64,000 bases of DNA. Origin: Margaritispora aquatica. Taxonomy: Eukaryota > Ascomycota > Leotiomycetes > Helotiales > Discinellaceae. Shown in pieces: positions 36,405 through 55,672 of this stretch. How positions within the stretch are numbered: the stretch's first letter is position 1; every line of letters begins with the position of its first letter. Below the pieces are notes generated by a model. It was given only the letters and a program-made list of their open reading frames with translations. It was not told where the DNA came from and did no database searches. The stretch spans positions 248,001-312,000 of the forward strand of contig VJWN01000005.1 of NCBI GenBank assembly GCA_007644065.1. The letters are read 5' to 3'. Both the position numbers and the translations under genes were made by a program.

Positions 36405-37077
36405 ACAAAGCGACAAACAAAAGAACTCTGCATACATGCATGGCATAATGCTTATTTTGATGGAAATGCATATACCCAGGCGTTTGGTAATTACGGGACA
36501 AGCGAGCGATACCTACTTTTATGGTCTTTTAATCTCTGCATTCATTTGCATATGGGCTTTCTATCCTTTTGATGGAAGTCTGACGACACACATACTCACG
36601 CACAGAAACACTCTGCTTTTTACTTGAAAACTCTTTTTTGTATGATAATCCGATAGAGGATGGGCATTGTCAGAGTGGCATTTTTTTAATGTTGAATGTT
36701 GGATGGGAGGTGATAGATAACCTGCTCATATGCCGACTTGACTGAGATGCTTGCTTAGATCCAGTAGATTAGTTTTGCACACTCAGCTCTATGTAGAGTA
36801 TCTGAATAGAAACCTGATTGAGACGCAATTTTTGGATGATGAATAAGTTGAGCTGCTTTTGCTTGTGATTCATCTCCACCTTCCAAGTTTTACTTTACTT
36901 GTCCAGTGACTGTGACTTGCTTTGCTTTGATGTGATTGATTCTTTGATAAGCATGAAAGAAATGCGAGATGAGGTGTATGAGATATACGTGGTGTGAAGT
37001 GATGTGATATGATTAAAGTGCGGTGAGTAAAGCGCCGCGAAGCTTACCTATAATACCTTAAACCACGAGTTAGCATG

Positions 37078-37123
37078 TGTCTATCTATCTATCTATCTAG
37101 ATAGGTAGGTAGGTAGGTAGGTA
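37078..37123. repeat. (CTAT)n followed by (TAGG)n
   Basis: A CTAT tract meets a TAGG tract through a CTAGATAG junction, nearly the mirror image of the 30677-30726 array. Confidence 0.88.
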
Positions 37124-37255
37124 TGCGATAGACTGGTGATATATAGGCATTGTTTTTGGTTCTGGTTCTGCTTTGGTTCTCAGCTCTGGGAATGGTACGG
37201 TAAGGTAGGTAGGTAGGTGGGTAGGTATTAGGTGGTGCTATTGGAACGGGTGAGA

Positions 37256-37281
37256 GGAAGAGAGAGAGAGAGAGAGAGAGT

Positions 37282-37330
<49 letters not shown>
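37256..37330. repeat. (GA)n(GT)n(GA)n compound microsatellite
   Basis: About 75 bp of GA, then GT, then GA dinucleotides. The strand asymmetry (all purine G with A/T) makes unusual DNA structure possible. Confidence 0.92.
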
Positions 37331-37337
<7 letters not shown>

Positions 37338-39613
37338 TATTTTTTAATAATAATAAAATAGAGAGATAGAGGAGATAGATAGTGGGGACAAATAGAGGAG
37401 ATAAATGGAAAAAGGTATGTCTTGAGAAAGAGAGCATGGAATGTGATATAGTCAAACAGACAGACAGACAGCCACAGAGCACAAGAAATTTAGTAGAATG
37501 AGTGATTCGGTTGAGTAGATGATATGTGAATGCATAAGGCGGTGGAATTTATGGATGGTTTTGAATGGTTAGATGAACGAATGAACGAGTGAACGAATAA
37601 ATGAATGAGTACGCTTTTCGATTGCCTAGTTTGGGATTGGGGTTAGGATTTGGGTTTGATTTAGGTTGTGATTCTAAGGTAAAGTGCTTTGGATTCTGGG
37701 TTGGGGCTAAGTATAAAGTATAAGATATAAATTTACCTACCATACTTTCGTGATACCTACAATCTTTTGAAAAGGATATTTATTCGAGACGCGTGGTAAG
37801 TAGAGTAAGGTAAGTAGGGAGGTACCTTAGATAAGCGATCCTATTGTTTGACTTTTTTCGGGGGCAGGACGTAAGGTATAAGATATAAAATATGGGAAAT
37901 GTGTGGGAATAGATGCCCAAGGCAAGATCTTACGATGGGTTTGTATGTACTTGATTAGTGTATAACCCTACGAGGTAGCTAGAGGGAAGGGTTGTAGAGA
38001 GGGGTGTTGGAAGTTTATGGTGTATAGATAAAGTGCAGTTTAAGTCATATGTCGTGGGTTGTGGGAGTAAAGTACTTGAGTTAAATAGAAGACTAGCTAG
38101 CGCAAGGTAAGTTTCCTATACTGGAGTTTGGATTGATGATGGCACTTGCTTCCGTAGCTGGATACGAAGTAGAGGAAGGATAGAGGCAGGTATATTTGAC
38201 TTTTTGGGGTATTGGATAATTAGTTATGTTTGCTTCAATCATGTTTGGAGATACTGACGGCATGAGATTGCACAGGGTGAGGCGAGGTGAAGATCAGTAG
38301 GTAGAAATCTAGCAAGCTAGTGGGATCAAAAAGCATGGGGAGTTGAGACAAGTAGAACTTGCTAGCTTTTGATTTCTTGGACTTAAAATTCGAGGCGTCG
38401 TTGATTTGTGAGGAATGTTTAGAGATTTGAGAATAAATTGCAAGTGTTCGCAGTCAGATATTGAGATTCAACTTCTCGCTTAAGTCAGACTCAACATCTA
38501 AAAAATTCGAGTTTGATGTAGGAGCTGGAAGGATATGGAACCTCTCTTGGACAGTAAGTAGCTACCAACGATTTTGGTCGGCATTTTGTGTTGCATGTTG
38601 TCCGTTATTATCATTGCTAGGTAGGTGGGGACGTATGGAGGACCACTGGTGCATGCAGGTTGGTATAAGTGAAAGAACTAGCATCAATCTTCAGTTTAAA
38701 AATTAAATGATTGAGAATATGTGATTGGGACTATATTTTTCAGCGATCGAAGGATGAAGAAAGGTACCTTAGCTTTGTCTGCAGAGTTGCTTTGGGATTT
38801 TGGGGCGAAACTCAATTTGAAAATCACATTCGTGCAAACGTAGGCTCGGAACATGATCGCCTAGGAGTCTGTATTGATATTTGAAACGTCTCTTTTGGAT
38901 GTGGGGATATAGTGTTGGTGTGGAAGGGAAACAGAACAAGGAGATAGGACGTCAAATGTGTGGATGACATAAACCGACGAGCTCGAGGTAGACTTTGTTC
39001 ATCGGCACAATTTCGCGTTTGTAGCAAAGAAACCATTCACTGTCAACGAACTGCAAAAGAACCATGTTTCGTTATGAGTGTAGATATCCAGTTGACTCTT
39101 GTCCTTTTGAGGATCGGTAGGCAGCTTTTGGAAGGATTTATTGTCAACTGGCGTTGTGGAAAAAAGGTAAAGGATATATTTTTAGACTTCTTAATGGAGC
39201 TCAATAAAATGAGCAGAGATTGTTCAACTATGAACTTCAAGAACGTCTCACCTTCACGAAAAGCAGTAATTGGATTGACCAATTCATCATTGGATGTCGG
39301 TAAAAATCAGCCTGATATTCCCCAGAACTTCAGGAGATTCGAAATTGACATTGAGCCCCTTTTTCATCGACACGTGACACTGACCTGACAAGGCCCGTGC
39401 CCAAGGGCCAAATTGTCCCAAGGCCAGCGAGCAGCAATACGACGCAATCAACATCAACTTTCAGCATTCCAACTTTCCACACTGCGTCCCGTTTATTTTA
39501 AGGGAGCTTTGAACATTTCGCTGATCTGCTAATAATTCTGCTGCACATTTTCAATTACTGAGTACCTTCCGCGATACAGAGCGCCCCCGCGCAGCGCAAA
39601 TACAACATTCAAG

Positions 39614-42600
39614 ATGGTGTCGGCCCTGCCCATCAGGTTCACGGAGCTGCTCCAGGTACGTAACGCGCTCCTCTCGATCCGCTATGGCTATGTATTGAAG
39701 CTGACAATCTGCTACAGTTAACGAACCCCGGTGTAGATATTCAGGTGCGTTGTGGAACTCTCTGCGCGAGGCTGCGAATGATCTAGACTCTCAGGCACCT
39801 GCGTTTGGATAATTATTCTAACATCAATGATTACAGCAAACATCAATTGGATTCAACACATGCGTAAGCACTTGCCCTGACCTCTAATTTATGATATCTT
39901 ACTAACTCTCCCCCAGACACTTGAGTCGGATTCATTCATTTGCGTACGAGAAAAGAAAGGCGAAACGTCCGAAGTAGTTATTGTTGACCTGAAGAACAAC
40001 AACAATGTCATCCGACGACCCATCAAAGCCGACAGTGCTATCATGCATTGGACCAAACAAATTATCGCCCTGAAGGCACAGTCCCGGACACTCCAGATAT
40101 TCGATTTAGCCCAGAAGCAAAAGCTGAAGTCTGCGACAATGAACGAGGATGTTGTGTTCTGGAAGTGGTTCAGCGAGACGAGCTTGGGATTGATCACAGA
40201 TACAACAGTATACCACTGGGATGTGTTTGACCCAAACCAAGCATCTCCCGTGGAGGTCTTCAAGAGAAACCCAAATTTGACTGTATGTTGAGCTAGTACT
40301 AGGTACATGTTGGGATGCTAACTGTTTCCTTAGGGCTGCCAGATCATCAACTACAGAGTAAGCGAGGATGCTAAGTGGATGGTGGTTGTTGGTATCACAC
40401 AACAAGCCGGCAGAGTAGTGGGAGCCATGCAACTATACTCTCGAGAGCGAGGCATAAGCCAAGCTATTGAGGGCCATGCTGCAGCATTTGGTACATTACG
40501 GTTAGAGGGAGCTGCGGCAGACACCAAGGTCTTCACTTTCTCTGTTCGAACTGCCACAGGCGCAAAGCTTCACATTGTTGAGGTGGACCACTTAGCTTCG
40601 AATCCAACCTTCCCAAAGAAGGCCGTGGATGTTTATTTCCCTGCCGAGGCCATGAACGATTTCCCAGTCGCCATGCAAGTTTCGCAGCGGTATAGCATCA
40701 TCTACCTGGTCACCAAATATGGATTCATCCACCTGTACGACTTGGAGAGCGGCACATGCATATTCATGAACCGGATATCCAGCGAGACGATTTTCATTAC
40801 TGCATCTGATTCTGAATCTGCAGGCCTTGGTAGGTTCCACTTTACTGTTTAATTATCAGCGCAGGCTAACAGATTTTTGTTCAGTCGGAATCAATAGACG
40901 TGGTCAGGTTCTTTCGGTCGCTTTGGACGAGGATACCGTTATTCCATATCTTCTCCAGAATCCCGCAAACTCGAGTTTGGCTGTGAAGCTCGCATCGAGG
41001 GCTGGCCTGCCCGGTGCCGACAACCTTTATGCACAGCAGTTCGACCAGCTCCTGAACACCGGAAACTATGCTGAAGCTGCGAAAATTGCTGCAAACTCGC
41101 CTCGTGGCTTTCTCCGTACCCCACAGACGATCGAGCGGTTCAAGGCTCTCCCTGCCGTGCCTGGTCAACTCTCGGTTATTCTCCAGTACTTTGGCATGCT
41201 CCTCGACAAGGGAACCCTCAACAAGCACGAAACTTTGGAGCTTGTGAGACCTGTTCTGGCCCAGAACCGCAAGCACCTTTTGGAGAAGTGGATGAAGGAG
41301 AGCAAGCTCGACTGTTCTGAGGAGCTGGGTGATATTGTCAGACCACAAGATTTGAACCTGGCTTTGAGCATCTACTTGCGCGCAAATGTTGCTCCCAAGG
41401 TCGTGGCTGCTTTTGCTGAGAGTGGACAATTTGAGAAGATCCTACCATATGCTGCACAGGTTGGTTATCAACCAGATTATGTGGTATTGCTTCAAAATAT
41501 CGTAAGTTGTTCCCCCCTCACCAATTGGAGCATTTGTGGTGCATCTGGGATATTAGCTAACCATAATTTAGATCCGAATCAACCCAGAACGTGGTTCAGA
41601 ATTTGCTACACAGCTTGCCAACCATGAAGGTGGTTCATTAGTCGACATCGAGCGTGTGGTTGATGTGTTCCAGTCTCAAGGCATGGTTCAGCCAGCCACA
41701 GCTTTCCTTCTTGATGCTCTCAAGGAGAACAAGCCTGAGCAGGGACATTTGCAGACTCGTCTCCTTGAGATGAACCTCATCAACGCCCCACAAGTTGCTG
41801 ATGCGATTTTGGGTAACGACATGTTCTCTCATTATGATCGTCCTCGCGTTGCACAATTATGTGAGCAAGCTGGCCTCTCTCAACGCGCCTTGGAGCACTA
41901 TAGCGACCCAGAATCAATCAAGCGTGTGATTGTCAATATTGTTGCTTCGCCCACTTTCAGTCAAGACTGGCTCAACAACTACTTTGGAAGCTTATCCCTC
42001 GAGCAATCGCTTGATGCCCTGGACGCCATGTTGAAGTCCAACATCCGCCAAAACCTCGGTGCTGTGGTGCAAATCGCTACCAAGTACTCTGACCTCCTCG
42101 GCCCTGTTCGGTTGATCGATCTTTTCGAGAAGTACAAGACTGCCGAAGGACTATTCTACTACCTTGGAAGCATTGTCAACGTTAGTGAGGAGTCGGAGGT
42201 CATCTTCAAGTACGTTGAAGCTGCAACCAAGATGGGCCAGTTCAATGAAGTCGAGCGAATTGCGCGTGATAGTAAGTTCTCAACACATCTCCATATCCTT
42301 AAAATGCCGCTAACCTTGGGCCTTCAGATAACTTCTACAACCCAGAGAAGATGAAGAATTTCCTCAAGGAGGCTAAGCTAACCGAGCAGCTGCCACTTAT
42401 CATCGTCTGTGACAGATTCAACTTCACGCATGATTTGGTCTTGTATCTGTACCAGAACAAGCACTTCAAGTCTATTGAGGTTTATGTCCAACGTGTAAAC
42501 CCTGCCAGAACTCCTGCAGTCATCGGTGGTTTACTCGATGTTGATTGCGATGAGGCTACCATCAAGACCTTGTTGTTATCTGTCAATGCTGCATCAATCC

Positions 42601-45600
42601 CCATCGATGAGCTTGTCGCAGAGGTCGAGAAGAAAAATCGTCTAAAGATCTTGCTTCCTTTCTTGGAAAAGACTCTTGCTGAGGGGAATCAACAACAAGC
42701 CGTTTACAACGCCCTTGCTAAGATTTACATTGATTCTAACAACAACCCAGAGGCTTTCTTGAAGGACAACGACCAATATGATACCTTGATCATTGGAAAC
42801 TATTGTGCTAAGCGGGATCCTAATCTGGCTTATATTGCGTTCAGAAAGGGTGGTAATGATCTTGAGCTGATTCAGATTACCAACGAAAACACCATGTTCA
42901 AGGCTCAATCCCGTTACCTTCTTGAGAGAGCTGATAGAGAGCTTTGGGCTTTTGTCCTTAGCGCAAACAACATGCATCGCCGCTCAGTCATTGACCAGGT
43001 CATCTCAACTGCGGTTCCTGAGTCTACTGAGCCCGACAAGGTTTCTATCGCTGTGGCATCATTCTTGCAGGCTGACTTGCCCGTCGAATTGATCGAACTC
43101 TTGGAGAAGATCGTTCTTGAGCCAAGTGTGTTCAGTGACAACACGAACTTACAGAACTTGCTCATCCTCACTGCCACCAAGGCTGACAAGGGTAAAGTCA
43201 TGGACTACATTCACCGTCTGGACGCCTACGATGCTCCAGATATTGCCAACATCTGTGTTGAAGTCGGCCTGTTCGAAGAGGCATTGGAAGTCTTCAAGAA
43301 GATCAACGACCATACAAGCGCCGCCAATGTTCTTGTTGAACACATTGTCAGCATTGATCGTGCACAAGAATATGCTGAGCGTGTTGAACTCCCAGAAGTA
43401 TGGAGCAGAGTTGCCAAGGCTCAATTGGATGGACTTCGTGTCTCTGACAGTATTGCCTCTTACATTCGAGCTGAGGACCCCAGCAACTACAGCGAAGTCA
43501 TCGAGACTGCAACACATGCCGGCAAGGATGAGGATTTGATCAAGTATCTCCGCATGTCACGAAAGACTCTTCGCGAGCCACCCATTGACACTGCTCTTGC
43601 CTTTGCCTATGCACGTACCGATCAGCTCAGCGAATTGGAGGACTTCCTTCGGGGTACGAATGTTGCTGATATCGAAGAGTCCGGAGACAAGGCCTACGCT
43701 GAAGGTCACCACCTGGCTGCCAAGATCTTCTTCACCAGCATCTCTAACTGGGCCAAGCTTGCGACTACATTGGTGCACTTGGAGGACTACCAATCTGCTG
43801 TTGAGTGTGCCCGCAAGGCTAACAACATCAAGGTCTGGAAGCAGGTCAACGCTGCGTGTGTGGAGAAGAAGGAGTTTAGACTGGCACAGATTTGCGGTCT
43901 CAACTTGATCGTTGATGCTGAGGAGTTGCAAGATCTTGTTCAGCAGTATGAGCGCAATGGCTACTTTGACGAGCTCATCACTCTTCTTGAGCAAGGTTTA
44001 GGTCTTGGTACGTTCTTTCCCCAAAATTTCCTTTCCTTCCTATCTCCCACTTCCTGCCTTTTCCTCTCCTCTGCCCCTTCCCTATTCTATCTCAGTGAGA
44101 TTACCTGCCATATCATGGAGAGGGAACAATTTTCTCGTTCTTCATTCCTCTTCTTACCTTCAACACCCACATTACGGAGTGGAGTCCACGAACCTCCAGG
44201 ACAGTATCAGAGAACCACAGACCTGAAGATATCAATTCAACGATCTGGGATCATTCAACTCGCTCATCATTTCAACGATCATTGAAAGCATCCCAGAGCC
44301 GCAAAACTGAAGATACCAAATCTGCCATCAAATCATAATTGGACATCGTCCATTCTCTCACCATGGCCTCTGTCCATGAGTTCATGCTATGGACGACATG
44401 GACGCTTCTCACTCTTACGACTTCGAACATCAAGAATCCTGTCCATGATATGCTCTTTCCCACACAAGGTGCCATGGAGAAGCTCCTGCTCAAAGTCACT
44501 TTTGCTACTGGCTTGATGGAAGCTTTGCGGTCCAAAATCCCGCCAACAATCGACTTCTTCAAGAGCTTGCCCACCGATGTCCTTGGACTTTGGGGTGTAT
44601 ACCTCATTCTACTCGAAAAAGTCGACTGCCGCCCCAAGATCTACATCGGCTCTTCAGTGAACGTTGCAGGCATGAATACTCGATTCACTTCTTACAATAA
44701 CGGCCATGCCATTCCGAAATGGGTTCAGCATGCTATCGAGAATGGCTTCACCATTACGCATAAAGGTGTGCTTTGCTGGACTACCATACCAAATGGGCAA
44801 TACCGATTTCCAATGCGTTCACTCCTCCTCATACTCGAGGCTTTCTTGTCTCTTGCGCTCTGGGCTATGCACTCTCGAACCAAAACTTATGGCATGCCAA
44901 ACTTCCTGTCTTGGCCAATGGACGCCATCCAATATGATGGTTGCTGCGGTCACGTCTCTATCTCGGAAATGGTCAGGGGCGAAGAAGATGGCCTCACCGC
45001 GGACCAAGTTGCTGTCAAGGAAGCAGCGATGGAGATTCGACGCAAAGAGCAAATGATCGTTGGAGGTCGAAGATACTATGCCAAAGTCAAAGCTGGGGAA
45101 TTCGAAGGCTGGTACGAAAGAAAGCGAGCCACCACCAAGAAGAGCCACGCCAAGGTCAAAAAGTCGAGGAAATGGTCCTGTGAACCTTGTGGCAAGGCCT
45201 TCATCAGCCAATACGCCTTGAATGACCACAAATCCCGATCGCTTCACCTCAACAAAGTCAATGGTTATAACTACACTAGACCCGACAAGAAGCGCAGAGG
45301 TGATGCTGTCAAAGCTGCCAAAACCCACCATTGTGCTACGTGCGATGCTGCTTTTGTATCACAATCTGGGCTGGCTTCACACAACAAGGGACCCAGGCAT
45401 CTTGCCAGAGCAAGAGCTGCTCAGGCAGCCTCTTAACAACCTCATACGCAAAAGAACTTTTGGAATTGCTTTGCTTATGTCTCAACATCTCGTAATGCTA
45501 CGATATCTTCTACTTGCAACATTAGAAATCATTTTGCTGCTCAGGCAGCTGAGACTAGCCCAGTCTCATATAGTCTCATCACTAACACAATCATTTCTTG

Positions 45601-46827
45601 GACTTTTTTTCATGTCATCATCAACTAACAATCGACATTACCGAGTCATGTACTAATACTATCTTTAGAACGCAGCCACATGGGAATCTACACCTCCCTC
45701 GGCGTTGCTTTGTCCAAATACCACCCAGATCGCGTCATGGACCATGTGAAGTTGTTCTGGGGCAGAATCAATATCCCCAAACTCCTTCGTGCCTGTGAGG
45801 ATGCTAACCTCTGGCCTGAACTTGTGTTCTTGTACTGCCATTATGATGAGTGGGACAATGCAGCTCTCGCCATGATGGAGCGTGCTGCCGATGCCTGGGA
45901 GCACCATTCCTTCAAGGACATTGTTGTCAAGGTTGCCAACTTGGAAATCTACTACCGCGCACTCAACTTCTATCTCCAGGAACAGCCATCTCTCTTGACC
46001 GATCTCCTCCAAGCACTGACGCCAAGAATTGACGTCAACCGTGTCGTGAAGATGTTCGAGAAATCCGACAATATTCCTCTAATTAAGCCTTTCTTACTCA
46101 ATGTTCAGTCTCAAAACAAGAAGATTGTCAACGATGCCATCAATGATCTCTTGATCGAGGAGGAGGACTACAAGACGCTACGCGACTCGGTTGAGAACTT
46201 CGACAACTATGACCCAGTCGAGTTGGCTCAACGCTTGGAACGCCATGATCTTGTCTTCTTCCGCCAAATTGCTGCCAACATCTACCGCAAGAACAAGCGA
46301 TGGGAGAAATCTATTGCTCTTTCGAAGCAGGACAAGTTGTTCAAGGATGCCATCGAGACTTCAGCTATGTCCGGCAAGTCTGATGTTGTAGAGGAGCTGC
46401 TCAGATACGTAAGTTCCCGATCTAATTTTTCCGAACATAATTTTCCGTGTCCCATAACTAACACTCCTCCTAGTTCGTTGATATCGGCAGCCGTGAGTGC
46501 TACGTCGGCATGCTCTATGCATGCTATGAGCTCATTCCGGTGCACGTCGTCATGGAAATTTCGTGGCGCCACGGTCTGAACGACTTCACGATGCCCTTCA
46601 TGATCAACTACCTAGCCCAACAACACTCTACCATTGAGATGTTGAAGAAGGACAATGAGGAGCGGAAGAATCGCGAGAAGTCACAGGAGAAGGACGAGAG
46701 CAATACTCCAATCCTTGGTGGTAGTAGATTGATGATCACAAATGGACCTGCCGGCCGCCAGTCACCAGCTCCATTTGCGCAGACGAACGGATTTGCACCA
46801 CAACCAACAGGCTATGGTGGATTCTGA
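39614..46827 (+). CDS. CHC1: Clathrin heavy chain (interrupted by a gene-bearing giant intron)
   Basis: Structural subunit of clathrin triskelia in endocytosis and Golgi-endosome traffic. The N-terminus MVSALPIRFTELLQLTNPGV opens the seven-blade propeller and CHC repeats follow. The C-terminal part reads LLRYFVDIGSRECYVGMLYA before the trimerisation region and a GYGGF-like end. Ten exons total 1,682 residues: 39614-39655, 39718-39744 and 39837-39863 (27 nt each), 39917-40282, 40334-40829, 40885-41501, 41572-42271, 42328-44007, 45669-46408 and 46474-46827. The ninth exon joins LLEQGLGL to ERSHMGIYTSLGVALSKY exactly as in the family, so the 1,661 bp between them must be spliced out. Without splicing, the frame reads 92 codons into the intron and stops at 44285. 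Confidence 0.96.
44363..45436 (+). CDS. Intron-encoded GIY-YIG nuclease-like protein with two C2H2 fingers (A)
   Basis: A predicted 357-residue protein lying wholly inside a clathrin intron, in sense orientation. GVY (78-80) and YIG (94-96, in KIYIGSS) form the GIY-YIG pair, with R107 and E159 placed like the catalytic Arg and Glu of GIY-YIG enzymes such as I-TevI. A YDGCCGH motif (191-197) follows. A basic linker leads to two U1/jaz-like C2H2 fingers, C273-C276-H289-H295 (CEPCGKAFISQYALNDH) and C324-C327-H340-H346. The first 60 residues are hydrophobic in part. The ATG at 44363 is in CACCATGG, a good fungal start context. The protein is homologous along its length to the one in the pyruvate carboxylase intron. 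The role as a homing endonuclease is inferred. Confidence 0.82.
   Translation: MASVHEFMLWTTWTLLTLTTSNIKNPVHDMLFPTQGAMEKLLLKVTFATGLMEALRSKIPPTIDFFKSLPTDVLGLWGVYLILLEKVDCRPKIYIGSSVNVAGMNTRFTSYNNGHAIPKWVQHAIENGFTITHKGVLCWTTIPNGQYRFPMRSLLLILEAFLSLALWAMHSRTKTYGMPNFLSWPMDAIQYDGCCGHVSISEMVRGEEDGLTADQVAVKEAAMEIRRKEQMIVGGRRYYAKVKAGEFEGWYERKRATTKKSHAKVKKSRKWSCEPCGKAFISQYALNDHKSRSLHLNKVNGYNYTRPDKKRRGDAVKAAKTHHCATCDAAFVSQSGLASHNKGPRHLARARAAQAAS
45416..45549 (+). repeat. Pair of identical 14-nt hairpin motifs
   Basis: GCTGCTCAGGCAGC occurs at 45416-45429 (last codons of the intron gene) and again at 45536-45549 (intron tail). Each can fold as a GCTGC/GCAGC stem with a TCAG loop. Confidence 0.75.
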
Positions 46828-49810: not shown

Positions 49811-52800
49811 ATGTCTGCCGTCGAGGATCATGAACACGAACATGGCCCAAATGCTGGCTACAGCGAGGTCTTTGAGGAGGGCAAGGATACCCAGCAATCG
49901 CAAACCATCCATCGCATTCGTGCAAACTCCAGCATCATGCAATTGAAGAAGATCTTGGGTGAGTCCCTGCCCAGCATCATCGGGCGTCAGCATTAGATGG
50001 ATTATGTTGCTAACCATTGATGTTGTGTGACTACAGTGGCTAATAGAGGAGAGATTCGTGAGTACAATTCCTTCAGATCATGTTGTGCGAGTATCAATGA
50101 CTGACGTTGTGTAGCTATTCGTGTACGTATTTCCGCTTGGCGGGGTAGTTGGGTTATTGGAGCTTCACTGACCGAGCTTGTGCTGCCATAGATTTTCCGT
50201 ACTGTAAGCATGGCCTTCCCTTCCAAAACCTGCCTATCAAATTCTGCGGAAACAATTATGCGGGCGCTGACTCGAAACTAGGCCCACGAACTGTCACTTC
50301 AGACAGTTGCCGTCTTTAGGTAAATCTTGGAAGCTTCACTTCGGCCTTTTGGTGGGGCTAACACATTGGCAGTTATGAGGACCGACTCAGCATGCACAGA
50401 CAGAGTAAGTCACCGCCTATCTTGCCATTCGCCAAGAACATTCACTAACTACTCTTCTCCCTACAGAAGCCGATGAAGCCTATGTTATTGGAAAGCGAGG
50501 ACAATACACACCCGTTGGAGCGTACCTGGCTGGTGACGAAATTATCAAGATTGCTCTTCAACATGGCGTGCAGATGATTCATCCCGGTATGGAAAATCCC
50601 TCAATTCGCTTAGAAGTGGTCTAACTTATCACGCAGGTTATGGATTTCTTTCCGAAAACGCTGCCTTTGCTAAGAATGTCGAGAAGGCCGGTCTTATCGT
50701 ACGTCCTTTCAACATGTGATTTGGTGAAGCCGGCTAATTGGATCTGCAGTTCGTTGGTCCATCACCAGAAGTGATCGACTCCCTTGGAGACAAGGTCTCA
50801 GCCAGGACCTTGGCCATCAAGGCTGGTGTGCCAGTTGTGCCCGGTACTGAGGGTGCTGTCGATAAATTCGAAGATGTCAAGAAATTCACCGACGAGTATG
50901 GCTTCCCAATCATCATCAAGGCCGCCTACGGAGGTGGTGGACGTGGTATGAGAGTCGTCAGAGAGCAAAGCACATTGAAGGATTCCTTCGAGCGTGCTAC
51001 CTCTGAGGCCAAGTCTGCGTTTGGAAATGGAACTGTTTTTGTGGAGCGTTTCTTGGATAAGCCCAAGCACATTGAGGTGCAACTCCTTGGCGACAATCAT
51101 GGAAACATTGTCCACTTATATGAGCGAGATTGTTCCGTGCAGCGAAGACATCAAAAGGTCGTCGAATTGGCACCTGCCAAGGACCTCCCACCTGATGTTA
51201 GAGATGCTCTCCTTGCCGATGCCGTCAAGCTCGCCAAGTCGGTCAACTACCGCAACGCTGGAACAGCCGAGTTCTTGGTTGATCAAAAGAACCGATACTA
51301 CTTCATCGAGATCAACCCTCGTATCCAGGTCGAGCACACGATCACCGAGGAGATCACAGGCATTGATATCATTGCCGCCCAAATTCAAATCGCCGCTGGT
51401 GCGACGCTGGCTCAGTTGGGACTTACGCAAGATCGTATCTCCACTCGAGGATTTGCTATCCAATGCCGTATCACTACGGAAGATCCCTCGAAGGGATTCT
51501 CACCTGATACCGGAAAGATTGAAGTTTACCGTTCTGCTGGTGGAAATGGTGTCCGGTTGGATGGTGGTAATGGATTCGCTGGCGCAATCATTACTCCTCA
51601 GTAAGTGGTTTTTTTTCTTTCAACACTTCGGAAGCGAATGCTTCTCTTTGTTTCACACATCCAATTGATCACAAGTGCGGTATACTAATCTTGTACTAGT
51701 TACGATTCCATGTTGGTCAAGTGTACTTGCCATGGTTCCACATACGAAATTGCTCGACGAAAGATGCTTCGTGCTTTGGTTGAGTTCCGTATCCGTGGAG
51801 TCAAGACGAACATCCCTTTCTTGGCATCTTTGCTTACTCATCCTACCTTTATTGAGGGTACTTGCTGGACTACTTTCATCGATGATACACCAGAGCTGTT
51901 CGACTTGGTTGGATCGCAAAACCGTGCTCAAAAGCTTCTCGCCTATCTTGCCGATGTCGCTGTTAAGTACGGCCCCTATCTCCATACTATATCAAAGCGT
52001 ATAAAACTAACACCGTTTACAGTGGATCTAGTATCAAGGGCCAAGTCGGCGAGCCCAAATTCAAGGGAGATATCATCATGCCAGAGCTTTTCGATGAAAG
52101 CGGAAAGAAGATCGATACCAGCGAGCCATGCAAAAAGGGATGGAGGAACATCATTGTTGAGCAAGGTCCAGAGGCATTTGCAAAGGCAGTACGCAAGAAC
52201 AAGGGCTGTCTTCTCATGGACACTACCTGGCGTGATGCCCATCAATCTCTCTTGGCTACCCGTGTCCGTACAGTTGATCTCTTGAACATCGCCAAGGAGA
52301 CCAGCCACGCCTACAGCAACCTGTACAGTCTTGAGTGCTGGGGTGGTGCTACCTTCGACGTTGCTATGCGTTTCTTGTATGAGGATCCTTGGGACAGACT
52401 CCGCAAGATGCGAAAGTTGGTTCCCAACATTCCTTTCCAGATGTTGCTCCGTGGTGCCAATGGTGTCGCATACTCCTCTCTTCCAGACAATGCCATCTAC
52501 CACTTCTGCGAACAGGCAAAGAAGCATGGTGTGGATATCTTCCGTGTCTTTGATGCGTTGAACGATATCGATCAACTTGAGGTTGGTATTAAGGCTGTTC
52601 AAAAGGCCGGTGGTGTTGTTGAGGGTACCGTGTGCTTCAGTGGAGATATGCTGGTAAGTTCACTCGTTCCTTCCCTCTTATTTTAAGCACACTCAAACCA
52701 CATGCCTCCTTCCCCATCCTCCCCCCCTCCTTCCTCATTACCACGCCTTCCATCAGTTCGCAAGTGTCGCAACTGCCTCCAGAGGGGTATGACTCCTCAC

Positions 52801-55672
52801 TTCCAAAACCTCGACCTCAAAATTAAATTTCAATCTCACTCCATCAACCTCCACATTCTCTCATCAAACCTCCAAAACCTCTCATCAAACCTTCACACCT
52901 CTTCATCAATTCGAGAGATCCAAACCTCAACCATTGGACGGCTCTATCACGTTTTCTTCTTCCAGGAGAGCCCGAACCGACTGAAACCTCCCCGCTACCC
53001 CACAAATCGACACTGTCCATTTCAGCATGGCCCTCACAAACGAGCTGATCATGACTTTCATTGGGGGACTTTTCTGGGCCTTCCTAGATGTGACACCAGG
53101 ATCCCTGAAGCTCAATGTATACGCTCTGATCATTGCCACACATGAGATACTCCTGCAGTTGCTCTTGAGTTGCAAAATGGAGTTTGCTCCTGGCCTACTC
53201 GAGGTACTCCAATCCGAGAGTCCACCTGGCCTGGCATATTTCAAGTCCTTGCCACTTGTTATCGACCGACGCTGGGGTGTTTACATACTTGTACTCGAGA
53301 AGTCAGGTGAAAGACCCAAACTGTATACTGGCAGTGGCACCTACACCCGAGGAATCTCTGCTCGTATGGGCCAATATAGAAGAGGAGAAATGATTCCACA
53401 TTGGGTCTCGATTGCTCTAAACAACGGCTACAAGATCACGCACAAAGGCCTTGTTTGCTGGTCACCCAATCCTGCTCCTTCGGTCAGGTTCGCTACTCGA
53501 GCATGCTTCCATCTCGCCGAGTGTTTCTTCTCTCTGTACTTCTGGACCATGGTCTCTCGAACTACGGACTACGGAATGCCACACATATGCCCCTGGGATA
53601 TTGACACCCTTGAGTACGACGGCTGTTGCGGTCATACTTGTCTGAACGAAGGGCTTGGAGATATGCATCAGCACCTGACATCTGCACAAATTAACGCTCT
53701 CGATGCTGAGAGGAAGCTCAAGAATAGCCGCAGAGATGCCACAACTCGTGGGCCTGAGAGAACAGCACTCGCACGGAAGACACTGAGAACGAAAGCTTTG
53801 TCTACCAACAAGTTCTTGTGCGAACCTTGCAATATCAACTGCAGCGATAACCGTGAGCTCAAGAACCACCAAAAAACCGAAAAGCACAAGCGCAATGCTG
53901 CCGGAATCGTTCTCCTACCTCAGAAAACCAGAGTTGCCAACAAACGAGTGGAGCTCCATGCCGCGAATATTGCTGCCCGCAGATTTTGCTGTGACCCCTG
54001 CGGTGTGAATGTTGTTACACAATCACATCTCAACGAACATTTCAGAGCGAAGAGCCACATCAAGATGATGGCCCTTCAGTCGAGCACTTCGCTCGACTCG
54101 CTCTGACATGGCACTGACCTTTTTGGACTCTCTTGGAATCTTTTTCTTCTGTTGTTACACATTATGACACCGTCCATTCATGCAAATTAGCATCGCTCTA
54201 TTTTACTAATGTTATATTTAGAATCCAAAGAAGAAGTATAACCTCGACTACTACATGAATCTAGTTGGGAAGCTTGTTGACCTCAATATTCATATTCTCG
54301 GCATCAAAGACATGGCTGGATGCATGAAGCCAAAGGCCGCAACCATCCTCATTGGGTCTATTCGTGAGAAATACCCTGATCTTCCGATCCATGTTCACAC
54401 TCATGATTCTGCTGGTACCGGAGTCGCCTCCATGGTCGCCTGCGCAAATGCTGGAGCCGATGCTGTTGATACTGCTACTGATAGTATGTCTGGGATGACA
54501 TCTCAACCATCAGTCGGTGCCGTTATGGCCTCTCTGGAAGGCACCGGACTTGAACCAGGTCTGAACGTCCATCACATTAGAGCCATTGACACTTACTGGG
54601 CTCAACTTCGTCTCTTGTATTCTCCATTTGAATCTGGAGGTTTTCCTGATCCAGAGGTGTACGAGCATGAAATCCCAGGTGGTCAATTGACCAACATGAT
54701 GTTCCAAGCATCTCAACTGGGTCTTGGCGCTCAGTGGGCAGAGACCAAGAAAGCTTATGAACAAGCAAACGACCTCCTCGGCGATATTGTCAAGGTCACC
54801 CCTACTTCTAAGGTTGTTGGTGATTTGGCACAATTCATGGTTTCCAACAAACTTAACTTTGACGATGTTCAGAAGAAGGCAGGCGAGCTTGATTTCCCAG
54901 GTTCCGTTCTTGAGTTCTTCGAGGGTCTTATGGGTCAACCATTTGGCGGTTTCCCTGAGCCATTGAGGACCAATGCCCTTCGTGGTAGACGCAAGCTTGA
55001 CAAGCGTCCTGGTTTGACTTTGGAGCCTCTCGATCTTGCAAAGATAAAGAAGGAAATTTACACCAAGTATGGCAGCGTGACCGAGTGTGATGTTGCTTCC
55101 TACGCCATGTACCCCAAGGTTTTCGAGGATTACCGAAAGTTCATCACCACCTATGGTGACTTGAGTGTTCTGCCAACCAAGTACTTCTTGTCGAAGCCTG
55201 AGATTGGAGAGGAGTTTCACGTCGAACTTGAGAAGGGTAAGGTTCTGATCTTGAAGCTTCTTGCTATCGGTCCTTTGTCAGACACCACTGGTCAAAGAGA
55301 GGTGTTCTACGAAATGAACGGCGAAGTCCGCCAAGTCACTGTTGATGACAAGAACGCTGCCGTTGAGAACACCAGCAGGCCAAAGGCCGATCCTGGAGAC
55401 AGCAGCCAAGTCGGTGCACCAATGTCTGGTGTCGTTGTTGAGCTGCGCGTTAAGGAGGGCGGAGAAGTCAAGAAGGGCGATCCTCTTGCTGTTCTCAGTG
55501 CGATGAAGATGGTATGTCTAATCAACCCAGAATTACGAATTATACTAACAAGTAATAGGAAATGGTTATCTCAGCACCACATGCTGGTAAGGTTGCCAGC
55601 GTCCAAATCAAAGAGGGAGACTCTGTTGGTGGCTCGGACTTGATCTGCAAGATTGTCAAGCCAGGCCACTGA
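49811..55672 (+). CDS. PYC1: Pyruvate carboxylase (interrupted by a gene-bearing giant intron)
   Basis: Biotin enzyme converting pyruvate, bicarbonate and ATP to oxaloacetate; cytosolic in fungi, and no presequence is visible. The 1,197-residue product has biotin carboxylase ([45 protein letters not shown]), carboxyltransferase ([30 protein letters not shown]) and biotinyl (LSAMKMEMVI) domains. Thirteen exons: 49811-49958, 50037-50057, 50115-50122, 50192-50203, 50282-50319, 50373-50404, 50467-50586, 50637-50698, 50750-51600, 51700-51966, 52023-52653, 54222-55511 and 55559-55672. Exon 3 is only 8 nt, but with its neighbours of 21 and 12 nt it restores GEIPIRIFRT exactly. Exon 11 ends at CFSGDML and exon 12 begins [15 protein letters not shown], the normal family sequence. 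Confidence 0.97.
52654..54221 (+). other. 1,568-bp GT-AG intron carrying a GIY-YIG gene (element B)
   Basis: The donor GTAAGT follows the codons for GDML. The 3' end is TACTAAT, then TTTAG, before exon AATCC. Other introns here are 47-98 nt. The contents are a C/T-rich leader (52670-52770), a 373-nt 5' segment, a 359-residue sense-orientation gene and a 115-nt tail. GACACTGTCCATT (53009-53021) lies just before the start codon and GACACCGTCCATT (54166-54178) lies after the stop, so the gene is flanked by a near-perfect 13-nt direct repeat. Confidence 0.88.
53027..54106 (+). CDS. Intron-encoded GIY-YIG nuclease-like protein with two C2H2 fingers (B)
   Basis: A predicted 359-residue protein inside a pyruvate carboxylase intron, homologous to protein A. 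Shared blocks are YFKSLP, WGVY-L-LEK---RPK-Y-GS, IP-WV--A--NG--ITHKG--CW, RF--R, SRT--YGMP and YDGCCGH. GVY is 84-86, but the YIG is changed to YTG (100-102, in KLYTGSG). R113 and E165 are retained. Two C2H2 fingers are at C265-C268-H281-H287 ([17 protein letters not shown]) and C322-C325-H338-H344. The N-terminal 50 residues are strongly hydrophobic. The ATG at 53027 has a CAGCATGG context. The role as a homing nuclease is inferred; the YTG variant may be less active. Confidence 0.8.
   Translation: MALTNELIMTFIGGLFWAFLDVTPGSLKLNVYALIIATHEILLQLLLSCKMEFAPGLLEVLQSESPPGLAYFKSLPLVIDRRWGVYILVLEKSGERPKLYTGSGTYTRGISARMGQYRRGEMIPHWVSIALNNGYKITHKGLVCWSPNPAPSVRFATRACFHLAECFFSLYFWTMVSRTTDYGMPHICPWDIDTLEYDGCCGHTCLNEGLGDMHQHLTSAQINALDAERKLKNSRRDATTRGPERTALARKTLRTKALSTNKFLCEPCNINCSDNRELKNHQKTEKHKRNAAGIVLLPQKTRVANKRVELHAANIAARRFCCDPCGVNVVTQSHLNEHFRAKSHIKMMALQSSTSLDSL

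What the first reader, a model, noticed from the sequence alone, without database searches (positions are those of the whole stretch)
52654..54221. Second, homologous GIY-YIG/C2H2 gene in a pyruvate carboxylase intron
A 1,568-bp intron 8 kb downstream carries a 359-codon sense-oriented gene clearly homologous to the clathrin one in order and spacing of motifs. Finding the same rare cargo in introns of two unrelated essential genes argues for mobility rather than chance capture.
Basis: partly seen in the sequence, partly recalled or inferred. Interest (0 to 1): 0.92.

Follow-up and report, generated by a model that had tools for sequence, protein, structure and literature searches.

The report
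Cutting-enzyme genes inside fungal introns
This fungus, and many related fungi, carry a family of DNA-cutting-enzyme genes hidden inside introns of essential genes; they look like selfish elements that each specialise on one conserved site, a way of life that I found described only for a group of giant viruses.

The parts
52654..54221 (+). PYC nuclease intron, GT-AG, 1,568 bp, phase 0
53027..54106 (+). 359-codon nuclease ORF (stop included)
   Evidence: five genome copies; 26 database relatives
53267..53641 (+). GIY-YIG domain (residues 81-205)
53519..53521 (+). codon of Glu165, the expected catalytic glutamate (role by analogy)
   Evidence: 76 of 76 relatives
53810..53896 (+). first C2H2 zinc finger (residues 262-290)
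   Evidence: below Pfam cut-offs in this copy, above two of them in the clathrin copy
53984..54058 (+). second C2H2 zinc finger (residues 320-344)
54204..54221 (+). branch-point-like TACTAAT and acceptor TTTAG
   Evidence: motif by eye
44008..45668 (+). clathrin heavy-chain nuclease intron, GT-AG, 1,661 bp, phase 1
44363..45436 (+). 357-codon homologous nuclease ORF in the clathrin intron
51601..51699 (+). ordinary 99-bp PYC intron at the site where Elsinoe PYC carries the nuclease (within about two codons)
42272..42327 (+). ordinary 56-bp clathrin intron at the site where Venustampulla clathrin carries the nuclease

Best explanation
The PYC intron is one member of a family of selfish homing introns in nuclear genes of filamentous ascomycetes. 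A GIY-YIG nuclease with C2H2 zinc fingers is encoded on the sense strand of a spliceosomal intron, so that the host gene stays usable because the spliceosome removes the insertion. Each lineage of the nuclease recognises one highly conserved coding site. It cuts an allele, paralogue or foreign copy that lacks the element, and repair from the bearing copy installs the element. Shown by sequence: nesting, sense orientation, five copies in five conserved genes, near-invariant core residues, grouping by target site. Predicted: the fold. Inferred: expression from within the intron, splicing, nuclear entry, cleavage, repair, and transfer between species.
Confidence: 0.78

Rival explanations
1. Only the nuclease gene moves: it repeatedly invades older ordinary spliceosomal introns, which serve as safe harbours; it neither creates nor moves introns.
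For: At 8 of 14 sites occupied in other fungi this genome has an ordinary intron on about the same boundary (binomial 1.3e-9 at two codons' tolerance, 5.7e-7 at five). Intron positions may simply be old and shared.
Against: 6 of 14 sites have no intron here. Related nucleases at near-equivalent sites of paralogues (ATP1/ATP2, CPA2/URA2) point to recognition of coding sequence rather than of an intron.
Confidence: 0.4
2. A nested host gene: the nuclease was domesticated and is inherited with the host gene for some cellular role.
For: All five ORFs are intact and share near-invariant core residues.
Against: Eleven different host genes in all and grouping by site across fungal classes; the own copies are not a clade.
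Confidence: 0.06
3. An ordinary transposable element whose survivors are found in introns because insertions elsewhere in the gene are lost.
For: Insertions in introns are tolerated in general (established knowledge).
Against: Few copies, no intergenic full-length copy in six searches, always sense, repeated use of the same codon boundaries in different species.
Confidence: 0.05
4. A group I or group II intron with its usual homing gene, misread as spliceosomal.
For: GIY-YIG genes are common in fungal mitochondrial group I introns (PMC7487136; start of abstract seen in a listing).
Against: No Rfam match at gathering threshold in the window or L006-L008; GT-AG ends with branch-point-like motifs in 4 of 5.
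Confidence: 0.02

Closest known systems
Mirusvirus spliceosomal homing introns, 'shintrons' (PMC12768974, Nat Microbiol, Nov 2025; passages and section 9 read)
   Same: GT-AG introns without group I/II signatures that carry endonuclease genes, GIY-YIG among them; preference for conserved key genes; target-gene specificity
   Different: Here in cellular nuclear housekeeping genes of fungi; one GIY-YIG/C2H2 family; near-equivalent sites in paralogues; ordinary introns on the same boundaries. No virus found: no relative confirmed in viral contigs
I-TevI and other group I intron GIY-YIG homing endonucleases
   Same: Nuclease fold and core residues; gene nested in an intron; presumed homing (recalled for I-TevI)
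   Different: Spliceosomal host intron; C2H2 zinc fingers; nuclear genes; no detectable match to the Pfam GIY-YIG profile
Inteins and group I introns at conserved sites (PMC2814812, abstract only)
   Same: Insertion at very conserved parts of conserved genes (by my reading of the host proteins; not scored)
   Different: That study found no such preference for spliceosomal introns, so this family would be an exception
Introner-like elements and propagating stwintrons of fungi (recalled; PMC12403724, start of abstract in a listing)
   Same: Multiplication of spliceosomal introns in fungal genes
   Different: Few divergent copies with a nuclease gene and a fixed site, instead of sequence-similar copies at new positions

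Membership tests
Spliceosomal homing intron (shintron) | Spliceosomal GT-AG borders, no group I/II signature | tested here: met
   4 of 5 introns GT-AG with branch-point-like motif; the DED1 intron lacks a normal acceptor at the needed boundary; no Rfam match. Actual splicing not tested
Spliceosomal homing intron (shintron) | Nested endonuclease gene | tested here: met
   Sense ORFs of 357-425 codons in 5 of 5; predicted GIY-YIG fold; activity untested
Spliceosomal homing intron (shintron) | Target-gene specificity | tested here: met
   Site labels 10 changes vs shuffled mean 20.7, 0 of 200 as low
Spliceosomal homing intron (shintron) | Spread into intron-free copies by cleavage and repair | not testable with these tools
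   Needs protein, crosses or isolates; only inferred in the viral paper too
GIY-YIG nuclease superfamily | GIY-YIG fold | tested here: met
GIY-YIG nuclease superfamily | Core residues: two Tyr, Gly, Arg, Glu | tested here: met
   Y86 74/75, Y100 73/75, G102 75/75, R113 71/75, E165 76/76; correspondence with I-TevI positions recalled, not superposed
GIY-YIG nuclease superfamily | Match to Pfam PF01541 (a detection aid, not a definition) | tested here: not met
   The profile rings at two other places of the genome and at none of the five copies
Group I/II intron | Conserved ribozyme structure | tested here: not met
   No Rfam family at gathering threshold in window, L006, L007, L008
Introner-like elements | Many sequence-similar intron copies in one genome | tested here: not met
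   Own proteins 27-35% identical; between introns one shared 16-mer at E 0.01

The most novel reading that the evidence does not exclude
Homing endonucleases are a source of ordinary spliceosomal introns in nuclear genes: a nuclease-bearing intron homes into intron-less, highly conserved coding sites, spreads between species and between paralogues, then loses its gene and stays behind as an ordinary short intron, as this genome may show at 8 of 14 target sites.
Probability: 0.35. Interest if true: 0.95.

Novelty: new variant of a known kind. Interest (0 to 1): 0.88.

Why it matters
How spliceosomal introns arise and spread is a long-standing question. A nuclease-driven mobile intron in cellular nuclear genes would give it a testable engine with named sites, named nucleases and, presumably, culturable hosts. 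It would extend shintrons from giant viruses to cells and would mean natural homing in essential nuclear genes. Practically, it would explain at least 31 apparently wrong public gene models, in which clathrin, pyruvate carboxylase, aconitase and others are joined to a nuclease.

Tried and rejected
Relatives in viral contigs and in prokaryote genomes: none confirmed (7 and 8 pattern matches). Pfam, PHROGs and PDB sequence searches showed zinc fingers and weak hits (one search lists only 25 of 67 families). Foldseek with the whole model: nothing at E 0.001 or better in PDB or in the viral library, where the first two ranks are named homing endonuclease (E 0.011) and putative GIY-YIG homing endonuclease (E 0.033). 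Idea that ordinary introns at target sites are longer relics: medians 87.5 against 60 bp, Mann-Whitney p 0.098, not significant; those lengths are approximate (the clathrin one entered as 65 bp is 56 bp). Group I reading: rejected. One expansion inside this genome: rejected. A second DED1 gene that would explain the odd acceptor: not found. A [D1,2] stwintron reading of the DED1 intron does not fit the letters (my reading).

Rows dropped or weak: from the site tree P0073 (near-duplicate of P0074) and P0076 (nuclease part under 200 aa); from the first tree P0045, P0046 and rows under 300 aa. Junctions and site labels were read by eye. In one search I merged ATP1 with ATP2, and CPA2 with URA2 and P0052, into one label each; this was fixed in the script, before the site tree was seen but after the tree and the best hits. 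P0052 (NYL^YTTYN) and P0070 (TG^A) have sites some codons or more away from others of their label; P0047 and P0072 are placed only within about ten codons; P0032 and P0068 read in about four or five codons after ACG^PCIG. Weak partial matches in the own genome (C45:999189, C46:1799307, C47:389785, C34:276370; E 0.014-0.25) were not followed.

Full report
What is there. The pyruvate carboxylase gene is split after TVCFSGDML by a 1,568-bp intron, 52654-54221, with GTAAGT as donor, TACTAAT near the end and TTTAG as acceptor. Of the eight other introns mapped in this gene, seven measure about 47-99 bp and one, in a poorly aligned stretch, 282 bp. Inside the long intron lies a sense ORF of 359 codons, 53027-54106. 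The clathrin heavy-chain gene upstream has a 1,661-bp intron, 44008-45668, with a 357-codon homologue, 112 of 337 aligned positions identical, E 2e-62.

Five copies, five conserved genes. Six searches of the 42.4-Mb genome with family members give the same five full-length copies; four further matches are weak and partial (E 0.014-0.25). Their flanks are exons of PYC, clathrin heavy chain, the DEAD-box helicase DED1, GCN1 and the ATP synthase beta subunit ATP2, in sense orientation in 5 of 5. Host names outside the named records are my reading of the translations. Intron lengths are 1,568, 1,661, 2,388, 1,750 and 1,917 bp. Four of five have GT-AG ends with a branch-point-like motif. DED1 is odd: by my reading its frame needs a one-base exon and an acceptor ending in CG, and no second DED1 was found. 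Nothing in the window or L006-L008 reaches an Rfam threshold. DED1 is 98% identical to that of Lachnellula arida over 287 residues, so I infer a source near the Leotiomycetes.

The same element in other fungi. A search limited to long proteins found 30 proteins holding the nuclease among 7,994 scored candidates; an earlier one found P0032. All 31 are annotated fungal proteins that join a nuclease to a conserved gene: PYC 4, clathrin 1, arginine CPS (CPA2) 7, pyrimidine CPS (URA2) 2, DED1 4, aconitase 6, SSB-type Hsp70 2, SSA-type Hsp70 2, ATP1 3; P0073 and P0074 are near-duplicates (hosts from record names, Pfam lists and reading). In 13 of 31 host sequence stands on both sides of the nuclease. 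I take them for gene-caller fusions across an intron, as in this genome; that was not checked on their DNA. The hosts lie in Leotiomycetes, Sordariomycetes, Dothideomycetes and Eurotiomycetes; classes were looked up for Venustampulla, Vermiconidia, Meristemomyces and Exophiala and are recalled for the others. P0026, from a Lecanoromycete record, is a relative without known context. The sample is biased: only joined products could appear, so free-standing relatives are not counted.

Nucleases follow the site. PYC SGDML^NP is shared by this fungus, Pochonia and F. fujikuroi; DED1 AAR^GLDI by this fungus, F. nematophilum and Pseudogymnoascus; CPS MIN^YNPET occurs in several classes and in both CPA2 and URA2 (junctions by eye). 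On a tree of 34 nucleases (5 own, 29 of 31 others) the site labels need 10 changes (minimum 9; shuffled mean 20.7; 0 of 200 as low). Host class needs 16 (minimum 4; shuffled mean 18.5; 17 of 200 as low). One clade of the five own copies is rejected (p-AU 5e-8), as is one of the three F. fujikuroi nucleases (0.007). ATP1 and ATP2 nucleases form one clade (97/94), and ATP1 alone is disfavoured (0.037; group chosen after the tree was seen). ATP2 TG^LTIAEEF here and ATP1 TG^ASIGEFF in Chaetothyriales look equivalent to within a codon or two; the F. fujikuroi ATP1 site is about four codons on. Against this reading: one clade of the URA2 pair is not rejected (0.168), and the F. fujikuroi PYC nuclease stands outside the PYC pair, though one clade is not rejected (0.18).

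Ordinary introns on the same boundaries. For 14 target sites seen only in other fungi I asked what this genome has. Eight carry a short ordinary intron at about the same boundary: PYC ITPH^Y, clathrin RD^NPEK, CPA2 MIN^Y and NYL^Y, ACO1 SPK^D and ACG^PCIG, SSB1 KKR^TF, ATP1 SMG^EWF. Six do not: ACO1 VEYH^GPG, SSA, DED1 QIER^GCDL, URA2 MIN^Y, CPA2 LQETG^, ATP1 TG^A. With 45 ordinary introns mapped in 7,775 codons of nine host genes, a rough binomial gives 1.3e-9 at two codons' tolerance and 5.7e-7 at five. It treats sites as independent and intron positions as even, which they are not quite. Nuclease sites and ordinary intron positions are thus linked. Either the gene invades old introns, or gene-bearing introns decay into ordinary ones. 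Without other fungal genomes I cannot tell which; intron lengths do not separate them (p 0.098).

How it most likely works. The spliceosome hides the insertion from selection. The nuclease, made from the intron (inferred), binds a conserved coding site through its zinc fingers and GIY-YIG module, cuts copies without the element, and repair copies the element in. Conserved essential sites keep the target available across species, as argued for inteins and group I introns (PMC2814812, abstract); that study saw no such preference for spliceosomal introns.

Known or new. Mirusvirus shintrons (PMC12768974; passages and section 9 read) are the same kind of thing in viral genes; the paper says that such endonucleases had not been seen in spliceosomal introns before. 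Ten searches of open PMC papers listed none whose title or abstract start, or the passages that I opened (PMC11889510), describes them in cellular nuclear protein genes. Most subscription papers and preprints are not covered. I file it as a new variant: cellular shintrons of one GIY-YIG/C2H2 family.

Noticed in passing
five nuclease introns: window 44008-45668 and 52654-54221, L006, L007, L008: The palindrome AAAG..CTTT (mostly AAAAGNACTTTT) occurs 8 times in 9,284 bp (PYC 0, clathrin 1, DED1 4, GCN1 1, ATP2 2); shuffles give 0.28, at most 3 in 1,000, and it tops all 256 palindromes of that form. AAAAGTACTTTT has 20 places in the genome, 4 of them in the DED1 and ATP2 introns. The motif was spotted by eye first, and at least one copy lies in nuclease coding sequence.
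   Followed up: partly
L006 (reverse strand), DED1 nuclease intron: To keep the DED1 frame two introns with a one-base exon between them and an acceptor ending in CG seem needed; an AG a little upstream would insert five residues in a helicase motif. Assembly error, unusual splicing or a damaged gene.
   Followed up: partly
SSB1 gene, L058: SSB1 has an ordinary intron of about 139 bp at KTKK^DLSGDARALRRL, the place equivalent to the SSA-type Hsp70 site where two other fungi carry the nuclease.
   Followed up: no
public protein records P0032 and P0047-P0076: 31 annotated fungal proteins join a conserved enzyme to a nuclease and look like wrong gene models; P0073 and P0074 also carry a ribosomal-protein-like N-terminus by my reading. 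P0013, a family member, is named rubrerythrin.
   Followed up: partly
G000:C26:122461-122613 and G000:C12:2047457-2047609 (L044, L045): The only two places where Pfam's GIY-YIG profile rings in this genome; the first holds a stop codon. Not identified.
   Followed up: no
window 37001-39000: Strong GC skew (0.54 and 0.39 per kb) with AG/GT microsatellites and G-rich runs.
   Followed up: no
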